A stretch of 64,000 nt of DNA from contig VYDI01000020.1 in the NCBI GenBank assembly GCA_009843505.1, forward strand, positions 1-64,000, read 5' to 3'. Source of the DNA: Holophagales bacterium. Its GTDB lineage: Bacteria > Acidobacteriota > Thermoanaerobaculia > Multivoradales > Multivoraceae. This document shows positions 928-5,901 of the stretch, piece after piece. Both the position numbers and the translations under genes were made by a program. The notes under the pieces are model-generated. The model saw nothing but the letters and a program-made list of their open reading frames with translations. It was not told the origin of the DNA and did no database searches. Within the stretch, counting starts at the first letter, position 1. Every line of letters starts with the position of its first letter.

Positions 928-1484
928 CGCGCCCACAGCATGCCGAGGCCGAACGCGATCAGCGGCGTCGCGATCAGCAGATCGGAGGGGCTCAGGGTGT
1001 ACACGGGCTCGGCCGCGAGGGCCTCGGTCAGGGTCTGGTCCGGGGACGGCACATCCGGCGTCTCGCCGCCAAGAACTCGAGTGACCGCCGCGCCCGCCTC
1101 GGGGCGCTCGGAGCGCAACTGGTAGGCGAGCCAGCCGCCGAGGGTTACGCCGGCGAGAAGGAACTGCGCGCTGGCCCGTCGCAACTGGGATTCGGCCTCG
1201 CGGTGCGCATGTTCCCGCTCGCCCGACGTGAGGTCGGGATCCTCCACGAGCTTCCACCGCTCAACGTCTATCTCGGCCCGGCGCCGGGTCGCCGCGATGC
1301 CGGACACGAAGCCGATCGCCGCCACCAGCACGTGCAGGACCCAGACCAGGCCGGGAACGTCTCTGGGGATGAGCTGGACCCCGACGATCGTCAGGATCGC
1401 CAGCCCCAGGAAGACCGCCGACCAGACGACGGCGATGCTCTGCAGTCGCCGCAAGTTCATCTGACGCCACATCCTACGCGCCAT
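888..1484 (-). CDS. Small membrane protein of unknown function
   Basis: About 198 residues from the ATG at 1484; further in-frame starts lie at 1523 (upstream), 1472 and 1460. Three likely membrane segments are visible: one near the N-terminus (AVVWSAVFLGLAILTIVGVQ), one directly after it, and a last one near the C-terminus (LLIATPLIAFGLGMLWARY). A charged, helical, probably cytosolic stretch rich in Arg and Glu lies between segments two and three. I do not recognise a family. The gene converges on the propeller gene with a 40-bp overlap. Confidence 0.5.
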   Translation of the reverse strand: MARRMWRQMNLRRLQSIAVVWSAVFLGLAILTIVGVQLIPRDVPGLVWVLHVLVAAIGFVSGIAATRRRAEIDVERWKLVEDPDLTSGEREHAHREAESQLRRASAQFLLAGVTLGGWLAYQLRSERPEAGAAVTRVLGGETPDVPSPDQTLTEALAAEPVYTLSPSDLLIATPLIAFGLGMLWARYQAGRSGERGSS

Positions 1485-1563
1485 GACTACGCATTTCGAC
1501 GATCTCCCGGTCCAGACCGCCATCGATCTGGGCGCGCCGTCCGTGAGCTACTCCCGGATGAAC
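1483..1563 (+). pseudogene. Possible N-terminal gene remnant
   Basis: An ATG at 1483 on the plus strand opens a reading frame starting MTTHFDDLPVQTAIDLG that continues for about 27 codons with strongly GC-ending codons, like resident genes. It then runs into the antisense of the metallo-hydrolase gene and stops near 1643. The ATG lies back to back with the reverse-strand ATG at 1484 within CATG. It may be the 5' stump of a divergent gene cut by arrival of the 1570-3919 cassette. The evidence is weak and it may be chance. Confidence 0.2.
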
Positions 1564-1569
1564 CGCTCG

Positions 1570-2649
1570 TCAGGCCGCGACGGCGTCAGCGAGCCGGCTC
1601 GCGGAACCGAACAACGCCACGCTCCAGCACGTGCCGCCGTCTAGTGGCCGGCGGAGCCGCACGACGCCATCCGACTCCCGATCCGCCCGAACTACTGCGC
1701 CGGACTCTCGAAGAGTCCGCTCTACTTCGCGGATTCCCTTCCACTTGCCCCCCGAACGCGGAGGCGCAGTGATGTACGCGTGCCTGGTGTGGTCGAGGAT
1801 TCGGTGGATGTCCTTCTCCGTGGGCAAGACGCGCCCCCCTCGCGTCCAAGGCGCAACGACCGCCATCGGACTCGGAGCCAGCAGTTTCTCCCACACCGCC
1901 GGGTCGTCGGCGCCTTTGGAGCCATGGTGAGGCACCTTGTAGGCCGATGCCACTCCCTCCGGTCTCGCCTTTCCTGCCACGATACGAGCCCAGCCGGCCC
2001 GCTCGAGGTCCGCCCCGAGAAGGACGACGATGTCGCCACCAGCCAGCCAGAGCACGACTGAGACCTCGTTCGGCGAAGGCTCCGAGAGCCTCCGTTTGGC
2101 TTGGCCGCTCTCGGGCGTCAGGCTGGCGAGCACCTGCAGGAACCTCTCGAACGTCGAATCGTCCGGTGACAGTGCCCACACTTCAGCAGTTGGCCATCGG
2201 TGAACTCGCCTATCGGCTAGGGCCCAAAGCGGCTGCCTCGAGCGGTCAAGGCGACTGAACACGCCGTGCATCTCCCTGACCCCGGAGCCCAGTTGAGACT
2301 GCCGCCGGCCTTCCAGCGTTCTCGCTGCCGCCAGGAACTCCCCCGTCCGCAGAGCGGCCGAGCAACAGAAACGGGCCCGGCCGCACCGCGCCACGACTTC
2401 CTCCATTCCACGAATGTGGTCGTCATGCCAGTGAGTCGCGACCACCAGACCGACGGACTCCGCCGGGTTGACGCCAATTTGCTCAAGGTACCGAAGTGGG
2501 CGAGGTTCACCCGTCGAGTCGACGCACGAATCAACGATCATCCACGCACCTCCGCCCAAGTGAACGACGACGCTCTCGCCGTAACCCGGTCCGATCAGCG
2601 TGACTTCGAGTTCGTTCGGGTCCGGCGCGCCGCCGAGACCTGCATTCAC
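1570..2649 (-). CDS. Metallo-beta-lactamase-fold hydrolase, ComEC-like (cassette gene 3)
   Basis: A 359-residue MBL-fold protein when started at the GTG at 2649, which overlaps the upstream stop codon by 4 bases (GTGA); an alternative GTG lies at 2682. Metal-site motifs are intact: an Asp after the second strand (IVDSC, about 40), HWHDDH at 73-78, an Asp in LLGADLE at about 214 and PHHGS at 240-244. This pattern matches the extracellular or competence (ComEC/Rec2) type of MBL domain rather than RNase Z or glyoxalase II. No signal peptide or membrane segment is present, so a cytosolic hydrolase is expected, perhaps a phosphodiesterase or nuclease. The substrate is unknown. It is the third gene of a tightly coupled operon. 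Confidence 0.8.
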   Translation of the reverse strand: MNAGLGGAPDPNELEVTLIGPGYGESVVVHLGGGAWMIVDSCVDSTGEPRPLRYLEQIGVNPAESVGLVVATHWHDDHIRGMEEVVARCGRARFCCSAALRTGEFLAAARTLEGRRQSQLGSGVREMHGVFSRLDRSRQPLWALADRRVHRWPTAEVWALSPDDSTFERFLQVLASLTPESGQAKRRLSEPSPNEVSVVLWLAGGDIVVLLGADLERAGWARIVAGKARPEGVASAYKVPHHGSKGADDPAVWEKLLAPSPMAVVAPWTRGGRVLPTEKDIHRILDHTRHAYITAPPRSGGKWKGIREVERTLRESGAVVRADRESDGVVRLRRPLDGGTCWSVALFGSASRLADAVAA

Positions 2650-3227
2650 AACTCGAACTTCTCCATGGTCTCTCGGGCCCACTCGCGACCAGCGCGAAGG
2701 TCGCTCTCCGTAACGACCGGGAGGTCCCGAACGTGGATCCGCGACACCCGCTGCGTCGTGCCGCCCGGCGTCCGTTCGTAGCCGATGACCCAGCGGAAGA
2801 TGCTGCCGACTTCCAATCGATCCCGGCCGTGAGAAATCTCGTTCAACGGAATCGAAGCGCTCTCCGTGTCGTAGAGGGCGCCGGCAGTCACATCGAGGAG
2901 ACGCGCCTCAAACGTCTCTTCACCGATCTCGACGACGCAGCCCTCCCACTCCTGGAGAGCGCAAAGCGTCGCCTGCGAGCTAGCTGTGTCGGCTCTGGCT
3001 GCGGGTACCCCTGCAAAGTCCACAGTCGTCACCCTTGCAGACGACGTGTCCAGGGAATCCTGCTCCGACTCAGCGCGTGTGCTCCCCGCGAGGTCTAGAG
3101 ACGAGGAGTCCTCGACAAGACGCATGATGGGCTCATGACGCAGGCTAGCGCCGAGACCACCCGGGGCGTTCCCGTCAACCGACCTCGATCCCAAAGGCAG
3201 CCGCTCCACGGCACTGGAAGCCGACAT
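2646..3227 (-). CDS. Unrecognised protein, cassette gene 2
   Basis: A 193-residue protein. The ATG at 3227 overlaps the stop of the preceding gene (ATGA), which fixes the start. Residues 1-90 are Ser/Ala/Glu-rich and probably disordered. Residues about 91-185 form a compact beta-rich domain beginning LQEWEGCVVEIGEETF, with further conserved-looking pieces FRWVIGYERTPGG and VSRIHVRDLP. The pattern suggests a small beta-barrel or SH3-like fold. No catalytic triad, membrane segment or nucleic-acid motif is obvious. It probably acts with its two neighbours. I do not recognise a named family. Confidence 0.65.
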   Translation of the reverse strand: MSASSAVERLPLGSRSVDGNAPGGLGASLRHEPIMRLVEDSSSLDLAGSTRAESEQDSLDTSSARVTTVDFAGVPAARADTASSQATLCALQEWEGCVVEIGEETFEARLLDVTAGALYDTESASIPLNEISHGRDRLEVGSIFRWVIGYERTPGGTTQRVSRIHVRDLPVVTESDLRAGREWARETMEKFEL

Positions 3228-3919
3228 CAGTGTTCCGCCTCCGCGAGGGACATGACCTGGTCGATCAAGGCTTCGCCCCGCCTTGTCGACTCCTCAAAGT
3301 CTCGTTCGAGCCTATCGACAAGAGCAGCGCCTCCTCCCTGGCCCTGCTCACCAGCGGTGTAGTGGTCGTTGACGCGCACATAGACTCCCCAGTGCTGGAG
3401 GCGCTCGGAAGGCTCCACTGTCACGTTGATCTGATCGTCTGAAGGACGATCGTCCGGTCGGTGCTGCCTCATGGTGAGAGAGATCATTCCCCCATGGTCC
3501 CCGTCCGGCTCCAATGAACAACCCCACTCGCCCCAAGGCGCGGTCGGCGCCAGCTTCCGGCCGATGCGGTCCCGCTCGGCCAGGCTCTGCACCCGAAAGT
3601 GGACTTCCCGGTTCATTCCGAGCGCCTTGATCGGCGTATGGGGCAGCTTCTCCCGGAACGTCCGCACGACGAGGTCACTCAGCCGGATCGTTGGCGCCTG
3701 CGAGGTCTCGACGACGAATTTGTCGGGCCGAACGCGCAGCTTCAACCATTCGGCATCGAACTGCGTGACGTTGGGGTGCGCCACGCCAAGCTCGGCACTC
3801 TCCACGGTTGTTCTGGGAAGGAGTCCCTCCAGGCCGAACCAGGCGGGAGTGAAGATCGCCGGATTGAAGGAACCAAGCAGCACAACGCTTACCGTGCTGA
3901 TGTCCGGCTCGATTCGCAC
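3227..3919 (-). CDS. Unrecognised protein, cassette gene 1
   Basis: A 230-residue protein starting at GTG 3919, with a GGAG ribosome-binding site about six bases upstream. Visible blocks are VVLLGSFNPAIFTPAWF (residues 12-28), LSDLVVRTFREKLPHTPIK (80-98), GMNREVHFRV (101-110) and VYVRVNDHY (179-187). A Glu/Arg-rich helix closes the protein. The dense motif-like blocks look like a conserved family, but I cannot name it. There is no signal peptide or membrane helix. It is the first gene of the cassette and sits next to an inverted repeat in the upstream gap. A sensor or scaffold role in a conflict-type system is speculation. Confidence 0.65.
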   Translation of the reverse strand: MRIEPDISTVSVVLLGSFNPAIFTPAWFGLEGLLPRTTVESAELGVAHPNVTQFDAEWLKLRVRPDKFVVETSQAPTIRLSDLVVRTFREKLPHTPIKALGMNREVHFRVQSLAERDRIGRKLAPTAPWGEWGCSLEPDGDHGGMISLTMRQHRPDDRPSDDQINVTVEPSERLQHWGVYVRVNDHYTAGEQGQGGGAALVDRLERDFEESTRRGEALIDQVMSLAEAEH

Positions 3920-3963
3920 GATGTCTCCGTCAGTGGTTCGGCCCTAGAACGAAGGGCTGCCTA

Positions 3964-4013
3964 CGGCATCAAGTAGCTCGGGGACGATACACGACCTCGC
4001 CCTCTTGATGCCG
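3964..4013. repeat. 10-bp inverted repeat upstream of the cassette
   Basis: A perfect pair of arms, CGGCATCAAG at 3964-3973 and its complement at 4004-4013, is separated by 30 bases in the 134-bp gap between the TRAP gene stop and the cassette start. It could be a binding site for a dimeric regulator of the cassette or a weak terminator for the transporter operon. The long spacer argues against a simple hairpin terminator. Confidence 0.45.
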
Positions 4014-4053
4014 AACGGGACTAAGGCTGCGCCCCAACCGCACCGCCCTTCGC

Positions 4054-5901
4054 CTACCTTCTGCCCAGCAGGTCGAGCAGGCCCAGGGTGAGCCCCGGCA
4101 CATACGTGATCAGCAGGACGCCGAAGCCGAGGATGACCAGCGCCGGCACGGCGGCCCGATAGACCGCGAGCAGCGGCCGTTCGAAGCGGTAGGACGCCAG
4201 GAACAGGTTGAGGCCCACCGGCGGCGTCAGGTAGCCGAGCTCCAGGTTGGCGACGAAGATGATCCCGAGATGGACCGGGTCAACCCCGAAGGCCAGGCCG
4301 AGCGGGATGATCAGCGGCACGACGACGACGGTGGCCGAGAAGATGTCCATCAGGCAGCCGACCAGCAGCAGGAAGACGTTGAGCGCAAGCAGGAAGACGA
4401 TCTTCGACTCGATGTTGTTCTGCACCAGTTCGACGAGAGCCTGAGCCGCCTGGGCGTCGACCAGCCAACTGGTAAGGCCCATGGCCGCCACCAGGATGAT
4501 CAGCACGCCGCCTACCAGCACGCCGCATTGCCGGAAGACGGCCAGGAGGGGCTTGCCCAGCTTCACGTCGCGGTGCACCAGGCACTGGACGACGAAGGCG
4601 TAGAGAGCCGCCAGGGCCGCGGTTTCGACCAGGGTCGCGTAGCCGCTGAAGAACGCGCCCAGGATCACGACAGGCAGCAGCAGCTCCCACTTGGCGGCCC
4701 AGAGCGCCCGCGCGATGCCGCCGCCGTCCTCCACCGTGGAGGCCCGGACCTTGCCGGTTCCACGGCGCAGACCCTCCCTCACTCCCCAGGCCGCGATGAG
4801 GGCGATCAACAGCAGGCCCGGCAGCAGGCCACCAATGAAGAGGTCCTCGATCGGCACCTCCGCCACGATGCCGAAGAGGATCAGCGGCAAAGCCATCGGC
4901 AGCAGAAGGCCGAGCGAACCGGAGGCGGTAAGCAGGCCGAGCGAAAAGCGTTCACGGTAGCCATCGGCCGAAAGGGCGGTGAAGAGCACGCCGCCCAGCG
5001 CCAGGATCGTGACTCCCGAACCGCCCGTGAAGACGGTGAAGAACGCGCAGACGACGGCGCAGACCACCGGAGTGCTGCCCGGCACCCAGCCGAACAGGGC
5101 CCGAAACACCCTGAGCAGCCTCTCCGACGCCCCGCCCTCGGCGAGCAGGAATCCGGTCAGCGTGAACAGCGGGATCGCCGCCAGGGTCGGCGACACGGCG
5201 AGCCGGTAGCTCTCCGCCGGGACCGCCGCGAGCGGCACGAAGTCGGAAAGGAACAGGAACACCGCCGCACCGCCCAGAGCAGCGAAGATCGGGCCGCCAA
5301 GGAGAGTCGAAGCCAGGATAAGCACCAACCACGGCGTGGCCGCTCGATCAGCGAAGGAGTCCGCGTTGGCGCCGATCCACAGACCGAGCACGATGCCGAA
5401 CCCGGCCAAAGCCCGGCCTGTCCACAGGTCCGACGATTTCCATGCTAGGCGCAGCGCAAGGATCGCGAAACCGACCGGCATGATCGCCTGGCCCGCCCAG
5501 ACCGGCACTCCGGCCGCCATCTCGATGCCGCCCTCGCGCTCGATCTGGACCAGGTCGAGACTGGCCGTGCCCAGCAGGGTGGCGACCATCGCGCTGACGC
5601 CGCCGGTAAACACCGCGGCAACGGCCCGAAACCTGCCTTCCGGCAGGAAGTTGCCCGTGGCCAGGGCGAGCAGGCGTCCTTCTCTCGCCGCCAGGCCCGC
5701 TCCCAGGAACGCGATCCACAGGGTCAGGTGCTGCTCGAACGGAAGCGCGCCCGGAATGCCGGTGCCGAGCTGCCGGACGACGATCTCCGCCAGGGGCAGG
5801 AGCACCATCGCGCCGAGCAGGACGATCGAGACACTGTCCTCCAGCCGGTGGAGGAAGCGCACCGGGGCCCAGGGACGGACCGCGGCGTCGCTCTCAGTCA
5901 A
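4054..5901 (-). CDS. TRAP transporter fused membrane subunits (DctQ-DctM)
   Basis: A 615-residue, almost entirely hydrophobic protein. Residues about 1-185 have the small-subunit (DctQ) pattern: four membrane segments with RQLGTGIPGALPFEQHLTLW-like features. Residues about 190-612 form the large DctM permease with roughly a dozen segments and typical glycine- and proline-rich loops (FTGGSGVTILALGG, LGYLTPPVGLNLFLASYRF). It should import a carboxylate or related solute using an ion gradient, fed by the DctP protein just upstream. Its ATG lies 8 bp inside the end of dctP, so the two are translationally coupled. Fused QM proteins are known in the family. The substrate cannot be read from sequence. 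Confidence 0.9.
   Translation of the reverse strand: MTESDAAVRPWAPVRFLHRLEDSVSIVLLGAMVLLPLAEIVVRQLGTGIPGALPFEQHLTLWIAFLGAGLAAREGRLLALATGNFLPEGRFRAVAAVFTGGVSAMVATLLGTASLDLVQIEREGGIEMAAGVPVWAGQAIMPVGFAILALRLAWKSSDLWTGRALAGFGIVLGLWIGANADSFADRAATPWLVLILASTLLGGPIFAALGGAAVFLFLSDFVPLAAVPAESYRLAVSPTLAAIPLFTLTGFLLAEGGASERLLRVFRALFGWVPGSTPVVCAVVCAFFTVFTGGSGVTILALGGVLFTALSADGYRERFSLGLLTASGSLGLLLPMALPLILFGIVAEVPIEDLFIGGLLPGLLLIALIAAWGVREGLRRGTGKVRASTVEDGGGIARALWAAKWELLLPVVILGAFFSGYATLVETAALAALYAFVVQCLVHRDVKLGKPLLAVFRQCGVLVGGVLIILVAAMGLTSWLVDAQAAQALVELVQNNIESKIVFLLALNVFLLLVGCLMDIFSATVVVVPLIIPLGLAFGVDPVHLGIIFVANLELGYLTPPVGLNLFLASYRFERPLLAVYRAAVPALVILGFGVLLITYVPGLTLGLLDLLGRR

What the first reader, a model, noticed from the sequence alone, without database searches (positions are those of the whole stretch)
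1570..3919. Compact three-gene cassette of unrecognised proteins plus an MBL hydrolase
Three reverse-strand genes are joined by an ATGA overlap (3227) and a GTGA overlap (2649). The first two proteins have dense, motif-like blocks (LLGSFNPAIFTPAWF and HTPIK; LQEWEG and FRWVIGYE) but no family I can name. The third is an intact ComEC-type metallo-hydrolase with HWHDDH and PHHGS. By eye the region looks less GC-rich than its neighbours and sits between unrelated genes, as an acquired module would. A sensor/adaptor/nuclease conflict system is a hypothesis only.
Basis: partly seen in the sequence, partly recalled or inferred. Interest (0 to 1): 0.75.

Follow-up and report, generated by a model that had tools for sequence, protein, structure and literature searches.

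The report
Three-gene nuclease cassette beside restriction systems
Three genes that travel together in bacteria labelled as many different phyla, and that in several genomes sit beside or inside clusters of restriction-modification genes, are predicted to form a new kind of phage-defence cassette: the last protein would cut DNA, and its two unnamed partners would likely sense infection and hold the cutter in check.

Summary
A (3227-3919), B (2646-3227) and C (1570-2682), all reverse strand, form a compact unit at 64.9% GC against 68.9% for the window. A and B match no Pfam, NCBIfam or PADLOC family. C is a ComEC-type metallo-beta-lactamase-fold (MBL) protein whose HxHxDH, D and HHG motifs are invariant in 40 of 40 aligned homologues.

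The trio recurs far beyond this genome: same order and strand at 53 of 56 fetched loci, labelled as many bacterial phyla plus one archaeal MAG, and on a Bacteroidota plasmid. The genes co-diverge (r 0.92-0.93). In 30 trio-bearing genomes no free-standing complete B or C was found.

In its own genus it is a mobile insert: 15 of 21 genomes have an empty site, 4 carry the trio there. The site also holds type II and IIG restriction genes, and the window keeps an 82-base relic of a type IIG gene. Elsewhere the trio lies within Hma (BREX-related) gene clusters.

I conclude it is likely a defence cassette with a nuclease effector. A is probably the trigger and B the restraint or sensor. Nuclease activity, phage defence and the roles of A and B are inferred, not shown.

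The parts
3227..3919 (-). Gene A, 230 aa, unnamed family; predicted alpha/beta sandwich; likely trigger/sensor
   Evidence: ORF; 550 database relatives at E<=0.01; no Pfam/NCBIfam/PADLOC match; AlphaFold2 pLDDT 92.1; G101 N103 H107 L123 W129 G144 P170 S171 N184 H186 identical in 90 of 90
2646..3227 (-). Gene B, 193 aa, unnamed family; variable, low-confidence N-terminal ~85 residues plus a C-terminal small beta-barrel; likely restraint and sensor
   Evidence: ORF; 790 database relatives at E<=0.01; AlphaFold2: residues 1-80 mostly pLDDT<60, residues 91-170 mostly >90; barrel in one open frame in 54 of 54 loci where its place is held
2718..2969 (-). Beta-barrel of B (residues 87-170), OB/cold-shock/aIF5A-like arrangement
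1570..2682 (-). Gene C, 370 aa (359 aa if the GTG at 2649 is the start), ComEC-type MBL-fold hydrolase, likely nuclease effector
   Evidence: Lactamase_B above its Pfam cutoff; profile of 40 homologues matches the ComEC MBL domain, E 3.8e-11; motif residues invariant
2416..2433 (-). HWHDDH metal-binding motif of C (residues 84-89)
   Evidence: H84 H86 D88 H89 invariant in 40 of 40
1921..1929 (-). HHG motif of C (residues 252-254); partner D225 at 2008-2010
   Evidence: invariant in 40 of 40
1464..4058 (.). Extent of the inserted segment relative to the empty site of same-genus genomes
   Evidence: L125 (G003) matches window 5999-4059 and then 1463-825 with 21 bases between
1483..1564 (+). Relic of a type IIG restriction-methyltransferase gene: its first ~19 codons joined to an interior stretch
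   Evidence: 37-base match of 1528-1564 inside the gene of L119, and 1483-1539 matches its start; translation compared; the gene identified

Best explanation
The three genes form a self-contained, horizontally moving cassette that is predicted to be a phage-defence module: C would be a ComEC-like DNA-cutting effector, and A and B would likely be the trigger and the restraint that decide when it fires. Shown: the trio is inherited as one unit, it inserts into an otherwise empty site, C keeps its metal-binding motifs, and the trio shares sites or gene clusters with restriction-modification and Hma (BREX-related) genes in several genomes. Inferred, in order: C degrades DNA once released; B's conserved barrel binds C or nucleic acid and keeps C inactive, while B's variable N-terminus samples the cell; A converts the signal into release of C; the result is destruction of invader DNA or of the infected cell's DNA when the neighbouring restriction system is overcome. 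It thus works like the gated MBL pro-nucleases HamM and CanC, but without a recognisable protease.
For: Unit: A-B-C at 53 of 56 loci; distance matrices of A, B and C correlate at r 0.92-0.93, 0 of 2,000 permutations as high, using 43 of 57 loci (14 dropped as cut, broken, fused or below threshold). In 30 genomes reached through A, B occurs 31 times (the extra one in a decayed second trio) and C in 29 of 30, with no free-standing complete copy. Mobility: empty site in 15 of 21 genus genomes, trio there in 4, restriction genes plus a B remnant in 1, rearranged in 1; G009 carries the trio plus a type IIG gene at another place; plasmid copy in Adhaeribacter. Effector: ComEC profile match E 3.8e-11; motifs 40 of 40. 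Context: type IIG enzyme beside the trio or its remnant in L002, L119 and L120, with a relic in the window; HmaB directly downstream of C in L009 (4-base overlap), L014 and L020, HmaC 0.5-4 kb upstream in L012, L020 and L041; MTase_III in L024, E1-E2/JAB in L035. Matched flanks: 180 PADLOC families among 83 proteins against 33 among 98 control proteins. Decay: A broken in 7 of 56 loci, C in 8 of 54, B in 0 of 54; C open with A broken in L051 and L053, as expected if A activates and B restrains.
Against: No activity was measured and no phage link is direct: 0 of 50,697 phage records encode A. Of 19 hand-picked neighbour proteins, 11 had no PADLOC match at 1e-10. Control flanks also hold defence genes (Argonaute, AbiEi, type II enzymes), and one protein can match many PADLOC families, so 180 against 33 overstates the difference. 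Between HmaC and the trio other ORFs intervene in L012 and L020, one of them on the opposite strand in L020, so a shared operon is supported only on the HmaB side. C scores far below the cutoffs of named defence MBL families. A and B have no assigned biochemical function. The decay pattern rests on 11 loci, some with frameshifts that could be sequencing errors in MAGs.
Confidence: 0.5

Rival explanations
1. The trio is a toxin-antitoxin-like addiction module of mobile DNA: C would be the toxin, B the antidote, A a regulator, maintained by post-segregational killing rather than by stopping phages.
For: Mobile, patchy (5 of 21 in the genus; 5 of 396 in the phylum sample), one plasmid copy; B is never broken while A and C are; orphan B barrels remain in G022 and G073.
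Against: Rare on plasmids: 1 of 72,556 plasmid records. Three conserved genes rather than two. C with a broken A persists (L051, L053). In several loci the setting is restriction genes.
Confidence: 0.2
2. The trio is a general DNA-entry barrier or degrader acting on plasmids and transforming DNA, an opposite number of the ComEC uptake nuclease, and not infection-triggered.
For: The closest solved relatives of C are ComEC nuclease domains; it lies beside restriction genes.
Against: C does not reach the full-length ComEC model (370 aa; TIGR00361 21.7 bits against a cutoff of 190.05, matched only at 202-259). It has two extra partners kept in strict linkage, which suggests regulation.
Confidence: 0.12
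3. It is a metabolic or stress operon: C hydrolyses a small molecule, and A is a ligand-binding or kinase-like enzyme of the arginine-kinase or AdoMet-decarboxylase type of fold.
Confidence: 0.13

Closest known systems
Trypsin-MBL pairs of Hachiman, AVAST, Lamassu and DRT (HamM gated pro-nuclease; PMC12799240, passages and sections 5, 8, 9 read)
   Same: A ComEC-like MBL protein of similar size (HamM 42 kDa; C 370 aa) encoded with partners. C has about 40 more profile positions than ComEC between the HxHxDH region and the next conserved block, and about 45 more at the C-end, so gating insertions are possible.
   Different: No trypsin-like domain found in A or B; not fused to HamA, Avs or LmuA; no cleavage site tested.
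Canu (caspase-CanB-CanC; PMC12799240 section 8)
   Same: Three genes with an MBL nuclease, and a partner (CanB) of partly unknown role.
   Different: No caspase domain found in A or B; A and B match no family in the libraries searched.
Auxiliary/backup nuclease modules of BREX and DUF499-centred BR (Hma) systems (PMC12839542; outline, passages, sections 29 and 35 read)
   Same: The trio lies directly beside, or within about 4 kb of, Hma genes in five loci.
   Different: Section 35 lists REase, HNH, HKD, TOPRIM/OLD, HEPN, PIN and Schlafen effectors; a search of the main text for MBL and lactamase found 0. Its supplements were not seen.
6A-MBL (NCBIfam NF058524) and AVAST type 1 MBL (NF041809)
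   Same: Weak MBL-domain similarity.
   Different: 16.1 bits against a cutoff of 220, and 14.2 against 420; no paper naming 6A-MBL in the library.

Membership tests
MBL-fold hydrolase superfamily | Lactamase_B domain with HxHxDH metal site | tested here: met
   PF00753 26.2 bits, cutoff 22.7; motif invariant in 40 of 40
ComEC/Rec2 | Full-length ComEC score | tested here: not met
   TIGR00361 21.7 bits, cutoff 190.05, matched only at 202-259
ComEC-like MBL nuclease domain | Sequence relation to the ComEC MBL domain, including the HHG motif | tested here: met
   profile of 40 homologues against 9ic4, E 3.8e-11, over both halves of the domain
Trypsin-MBL defence pair (HamM type) | Partner with a trypsin-like protease domain | tested here: not met
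   no Pfam family in A or B at E<=1; only seven single-member chance-level families in 33 divergent A and B proteins at E<=10
Trypsin-MBL defence pair (HamM type) | Active-site-blocking insertions in the nuclease | tested here: inconclusive
   extra residues relative to ComEC at two places, but no structure of C was predicted (both jobs went to A and B)
Canu | Caspase-family protease partner | tested here: not met
6A-MBL; AVAST type 1 MBL | NCBIfam equivalog cutoffs 220 and 420 bits | tested here: not met
   16.1 and 14.2 bits
Guanidino kinase / McsB (for A) | Sequence-profile relation to PF00217 | tested here: not met
   hhalign probability 0.4%, E 0.15, with four McsB proteins; no PF00217 hit
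Guanidino kinase / McsB (for A) | Shared fold | tested here: inconclusive
Backup effector of Hma/BR systems | Located within or immediately beside the core genes | tested here: met
   in 3 of 56 loci: L009, L014 and L020, HmaB within 41 bases of or overlapping C; L020 also HmaC about 4 kb upstream and a helicase after HmaB
Backup effector of Hma/BR systems | Nuclease activity that adds to phage restriction | not testable with these tools
   needs assay
Any anti-phage system | Reduces phage plating | not testable with these tools
   needs phage challenge

The most novel reading that the evidence does not exclude
A protease-free way to switch a ComEC-type pro-nuclease: B's conserved barrel locks C, B's fast-changing N-terminus is a swappable bait, and A springs the lock when the bait or the neighbouring restriction system is attacked. 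In one alphaproteobacterial MAG contig (L031) the bait region has been replaced by an FtsZ GTPase domain fused in frame to B, as if the module guarded cell division against phage inhibitors of FtsZ. After decay, solitary B barrels joined to A's first codons may persist as immunity genes.
Probability: 0.25. Interest if true: 0.86.

Novelty: new variant of a known kind. Interest (0 to 1): 0.63.

Why it matters
Two protein families with more than 500 database relatives each and no name turn out to be standing partners of a ComEC-like MBL protein, in a cassette that moves between bacteria of many labelled phyla. If it is a defence system, it adds a new effector module to restriction and BREX-related systems. 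It would also show that MBL pro-nucleases, in the published cases I read released by trypsin-like or caspase proteases, can be controlled by something else. Open-frame copies exist in genomes of named strains (Streptomyces geranii, Kribbella antiqua, Jiangella ureilytica, Reyranella massiliensis, a Kitasatospora) and on a complete Adhaeribacter swui plasmid, so the idea can be tested directly.

Tried and rejected
A as a guanidino (McsB-like) kinase: suggested by the fold comparison and by a motif resemblance that I recalled; rejected as a membership claim because profile comparison with four McsB proteins gave 0.4% (negative control against the MBL profile 0.1%). My first PF00217 search found none in 60 genomes and rang in no control genome, so the McsB proteins came (4 of 16 genomes).

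A fourth constant partner: clustering neighbour ORFs of 90 aa or more gave no cluster in more than 5 loci, so the trio looks self-contained.

Phage-borne system: 0 of 50,697 phage records; 1 locus in the viral-contig collection.

Naming through literature (listings seen, full texts only where said): searches for 6A-MBL, MBL three-gene anti-phage, trypsin-MBL, defence islands with MBL and sponge symbionts, TIGR04255, effector-associated domains, Hma/DUF499, and MBL-fold with ComEC listed no paper that I could recognise as describing this trio. Two eLife conflict-system papers searched by terms (PMC8195603, PMC7159879; passages only) have no 'MBL' or 'lactamase'.

Solved structures: the A profile gave only chance-like hits, as did B. 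TIGR04255 as a relative of A was a recalled lead; NCBIfam gave nothing for the window's A. The plain Foldseek search of the PDB could not be run.

Full report
WHAT IS THERE. The finding is confirmed in the sequence. Three reverse-strand genes lie head to tail: A (3227-3919, 230 aa), B (2646-3227, 193 aa) and C (1570-2682, 370 aa, or 359 aa from the GTG at 2649). A and B overlap by one base (TGATG); B and C overlap by four bases if C starts at 2649. GC is 64.9% against 68.9% for the window; 3 of 247 windows of equal size are lower.

NO KNOWN FAMILY FOR A AND B. Neither matches Pfam, NCBIfam or PADLOC at E<=1. Thirty-three divergent A and B proteins gave only seven single-member, chance-level Pfam families at E<=10. 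Database searches give 550 relatives of A and 790 of B at E<=0.01, none with a precomputed Pfam domain in the 120 rows listed for each. A divergent actinomycete A finds 39 relatives, called only 'hypothetical protein' where a name is given.

C IS A COMEC-TYPE MBL PROTEIN. Lactamase_B is above its cutoff (26.2 against 22.7 bits). A profile of 40 C proteins matches the ComEC MBL domain of 9ic4 at 3.8e-11 over both halves. H84, H86, D88, H89, D225 and H252-H253-G254 are identical in 40 of 40. Relative to ComEC there are about 40 extra profile positions between the HxHxDH region and the next conserved block (103 against 63), and about 45 more at the end (102 against 57) (my arithmetic from the alignment). 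C is far below the cutoffs of ComEC/Rec2, 6A-MBL and AVAST type 1.

THE TRIO IS A UNIT. A scan of one genome per species for A found 55 loci; one more came from the viral contigs, one from 72,556 plasmid records and none from 50,697 phage records. Record titles name Acidobacteria, Nitrospirales/Nitrospira, Latescibacteria, Gemmatimonadota, Alpha-, Gamma- and Deltaproteobacteria, Nitrospinae, Entotheonella, Binatia, Rhodothermales, Flavobacteriales, the SAR202 cluster, actinomycetes and a Thermoplasmata archaeon. Many are MAGs, but named strains and chromosome-level records are among them. All three genes stand in the same order and strand at 53 of 56 loci; L021 and L038 end before B, and L032 lost C. 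Pairwise distances of A, B and C correlate at r 0.923, 0.931 and 0.931, with 0 of 2,000 permutations as high (43 of 57 loci used). In 30 genomes reached through A hits, B was found 31 times (the extra one in a decayed second trio of G408), and C in 29 of 30 at 1e-20 with no free-standing complete copy; the further rows are pieces of split, cut or decayed copies, one of them (G432) on another contig. No neighbour cluster occurs in more than 5 loci.

IT IS A MOBILE INSERT IN ITS OWN GENUS. A is found in 5 of 21 same-genus genomes and in 5 of 396 of a phylum sample in which only a few candidates per genome were scored; B is found in 7 of 295 relatives. The transporter gene and the 211-aa gene that flank the trio are adjacent (within about 110 bases) in 15 of 21 genomes, separated by the trio in 4 (G000, G015, G020, G021), by other genes in 1 (G022), and rearranged in 1 (G006). 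In G003 the 2,595 bases of window 1464-4058 are replaced by 21 bases. G022 holds at this site a B barrel alone, then a cytosine methyltransferase, a GHKL ATPase that PADLOC calls a type II restriction enzyme, and a 1,393-aa type IIG restriction-methyltransferase. G015 holds the trio with broken A and C plus a 923-aa piece of the same type IIG protein. G009 carries trio and type IIG gene at another place, while its usual site is empty. The window itself keeps a relic at 1483-1564: the first codons of the type IIG gene joined to an interior stretch. So an ancestor of this locus probably had that restriction gene next to the trio.

DEFENCE SURROUNDINGS ELSEWHERE. All 5 proteins scanned from L002, L119 and L120 match restriction or methyltransferase models. 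An HmaB (DUF1156) methyltransferase lies directly downstream of C in L009 (overlapping by 4 bases), L014 (41 bases) and L020 (39 bases; HmaB matches 3 members of the set, and L020 clusters with the other two); in L020 an SF2 helicase follows. An HmaC (DUF499) ATPase lies upstream in L041 (about 0.5 kb), L012 (about 2.7 kb) and L020 (about 4 kb), with other ORFs between in the last two. L041 also has an HmaB-clustered fragment 39 bases downstream. L024 has a type III methyltransferase and L035 an E1-E2/JAB protein. Of 19 neighbour proteins picked by hand matched and 11 did not. For a matched control I took 23 loci and a stretch 30 kb or more away on the same contigs: 83 trio-flank proteins hit 180 PADLOC families at 1e-10, and 98 control proteins hit 33. 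One protein can hit many families, at least two pairs of loci are close relatives, and control flanks also hold Argonaute, AbiEi and type II genes, so I read this as support, not proof.

DECAY PATTERN. Reading each locus as stop-to-stop frames, A is broken or internally deleted in 7 of 56 loci (L004, L021, L032, L033, L049, L051, L053; L003, with a stop a few residues before the end, is not counted), C is broken or lost in 8 of 54 (L004, L006, L013 by a 3.4-kb insert with a transposase-like ORF, L023, L032, L033, L044, L049), and B in 0 of 54 (in L053 the match ends about ten positions early). If breaks fell by gene length, 0 of 15 in B would have a chance near 1% (my arithmetic; the breaks are not all independent, and some MAG frameshifts may be sequencing errors). 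C stays open where A is broken in L051 and L053, so C is probably not lethal without A. Orphan B barrels stand in G022 (L119, 108 aa) and G073 (L171, 125 aa, where the frame runs from A-like first codons straight into the barrel and the last ~76 codons of C follow). This favours A as trigger and B as restraint; it is an inference.

A POSSIBLE BAIT SWAP. In L031 the B frame is 569 aa: residues 5-335 match FtsZ (2vam, E 4.9e-98), fused in frame to B from about position 38 of the B profile, with the FtsZ start at the A stop. The FtsZ stretch has GC of about 63-69%, near the contig flanks; A and B around it have about 49-57%, C 57-66%. It is one short MAG contig and could be an assembly chimera, but two gene-precise junctions make that less likely. 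If real, it suggests that B's N-terminus is a replaceable sensor region.

MECHANISM AND COMPARISON. In Hachiman and AVAST an MBL protein is a gated pro-nuclease opened by a trypsin-like partner, and in Canu by a caspase complex (PMC12799240; passages and sections 5, 8 and 9 read). The present trio shares the effector type and, by inference, the logic of a silent nuclease with partners, but no protease was recognised in A or B, so I do not file it under those systems. A 2026 survey of BREX and DUF499-centred BR (Hma) systems lists many backup nucleases; its main text does not contain 'MBL' or 'lactamase' (PMC12839542; outline, passages, sections 29 and 35; supplements not seen). My reading is that the trio is a new module of this backup kind, probability about 0.5. 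The rest is spread over addiction-like, anti-DNA-entry and metabolic readings.

Noticed in passing
L031:1321-3030: An FtsZ GTPase domain fused in frame to the B barrel inside a trio, with GC nearer the contig flanks than A and B around it.
   Followed up: partly
window 1483-1564 (+): Relic of a type IIG restriction gene: start codons joined to an interior stretch at a short shared sequence.
   Followed up: yes
window 1464-1523 (-): The first 20 codons of the 211-aa ORF (888-1523) come from the insert; in 18 of the 20 other genus genomes the best match starts at residue 19-23, so the start at 1523 is probably too far upstream.
   Followed up: partly
L119:885-1211 and L171:4606-4983: Solitary B barrels whose frame begins like A's first codons, without A and with no or only a tail of C.
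   Followed up: partly
L013:9780-13236: Gene C split by an insert carrying a 312-aa ORF that looks like an IS1595/ISXO2-type transposase (recalled resemblance).
   Followed up: no
L032:10320-11264: C lost; a Fic-like ORF (HPFDDGNGR motif, recalled) begins with what look like C's first codons; PADLOC SoFic matched 2 of 72 members of the set that includes it, members not named.
   Followed up: no
L123 (G006:C5:218200-222300): The flanking transporter gene is inverted relative to the 211-aa gene in G006, a rearrangement at the same site.
   Followed up: no
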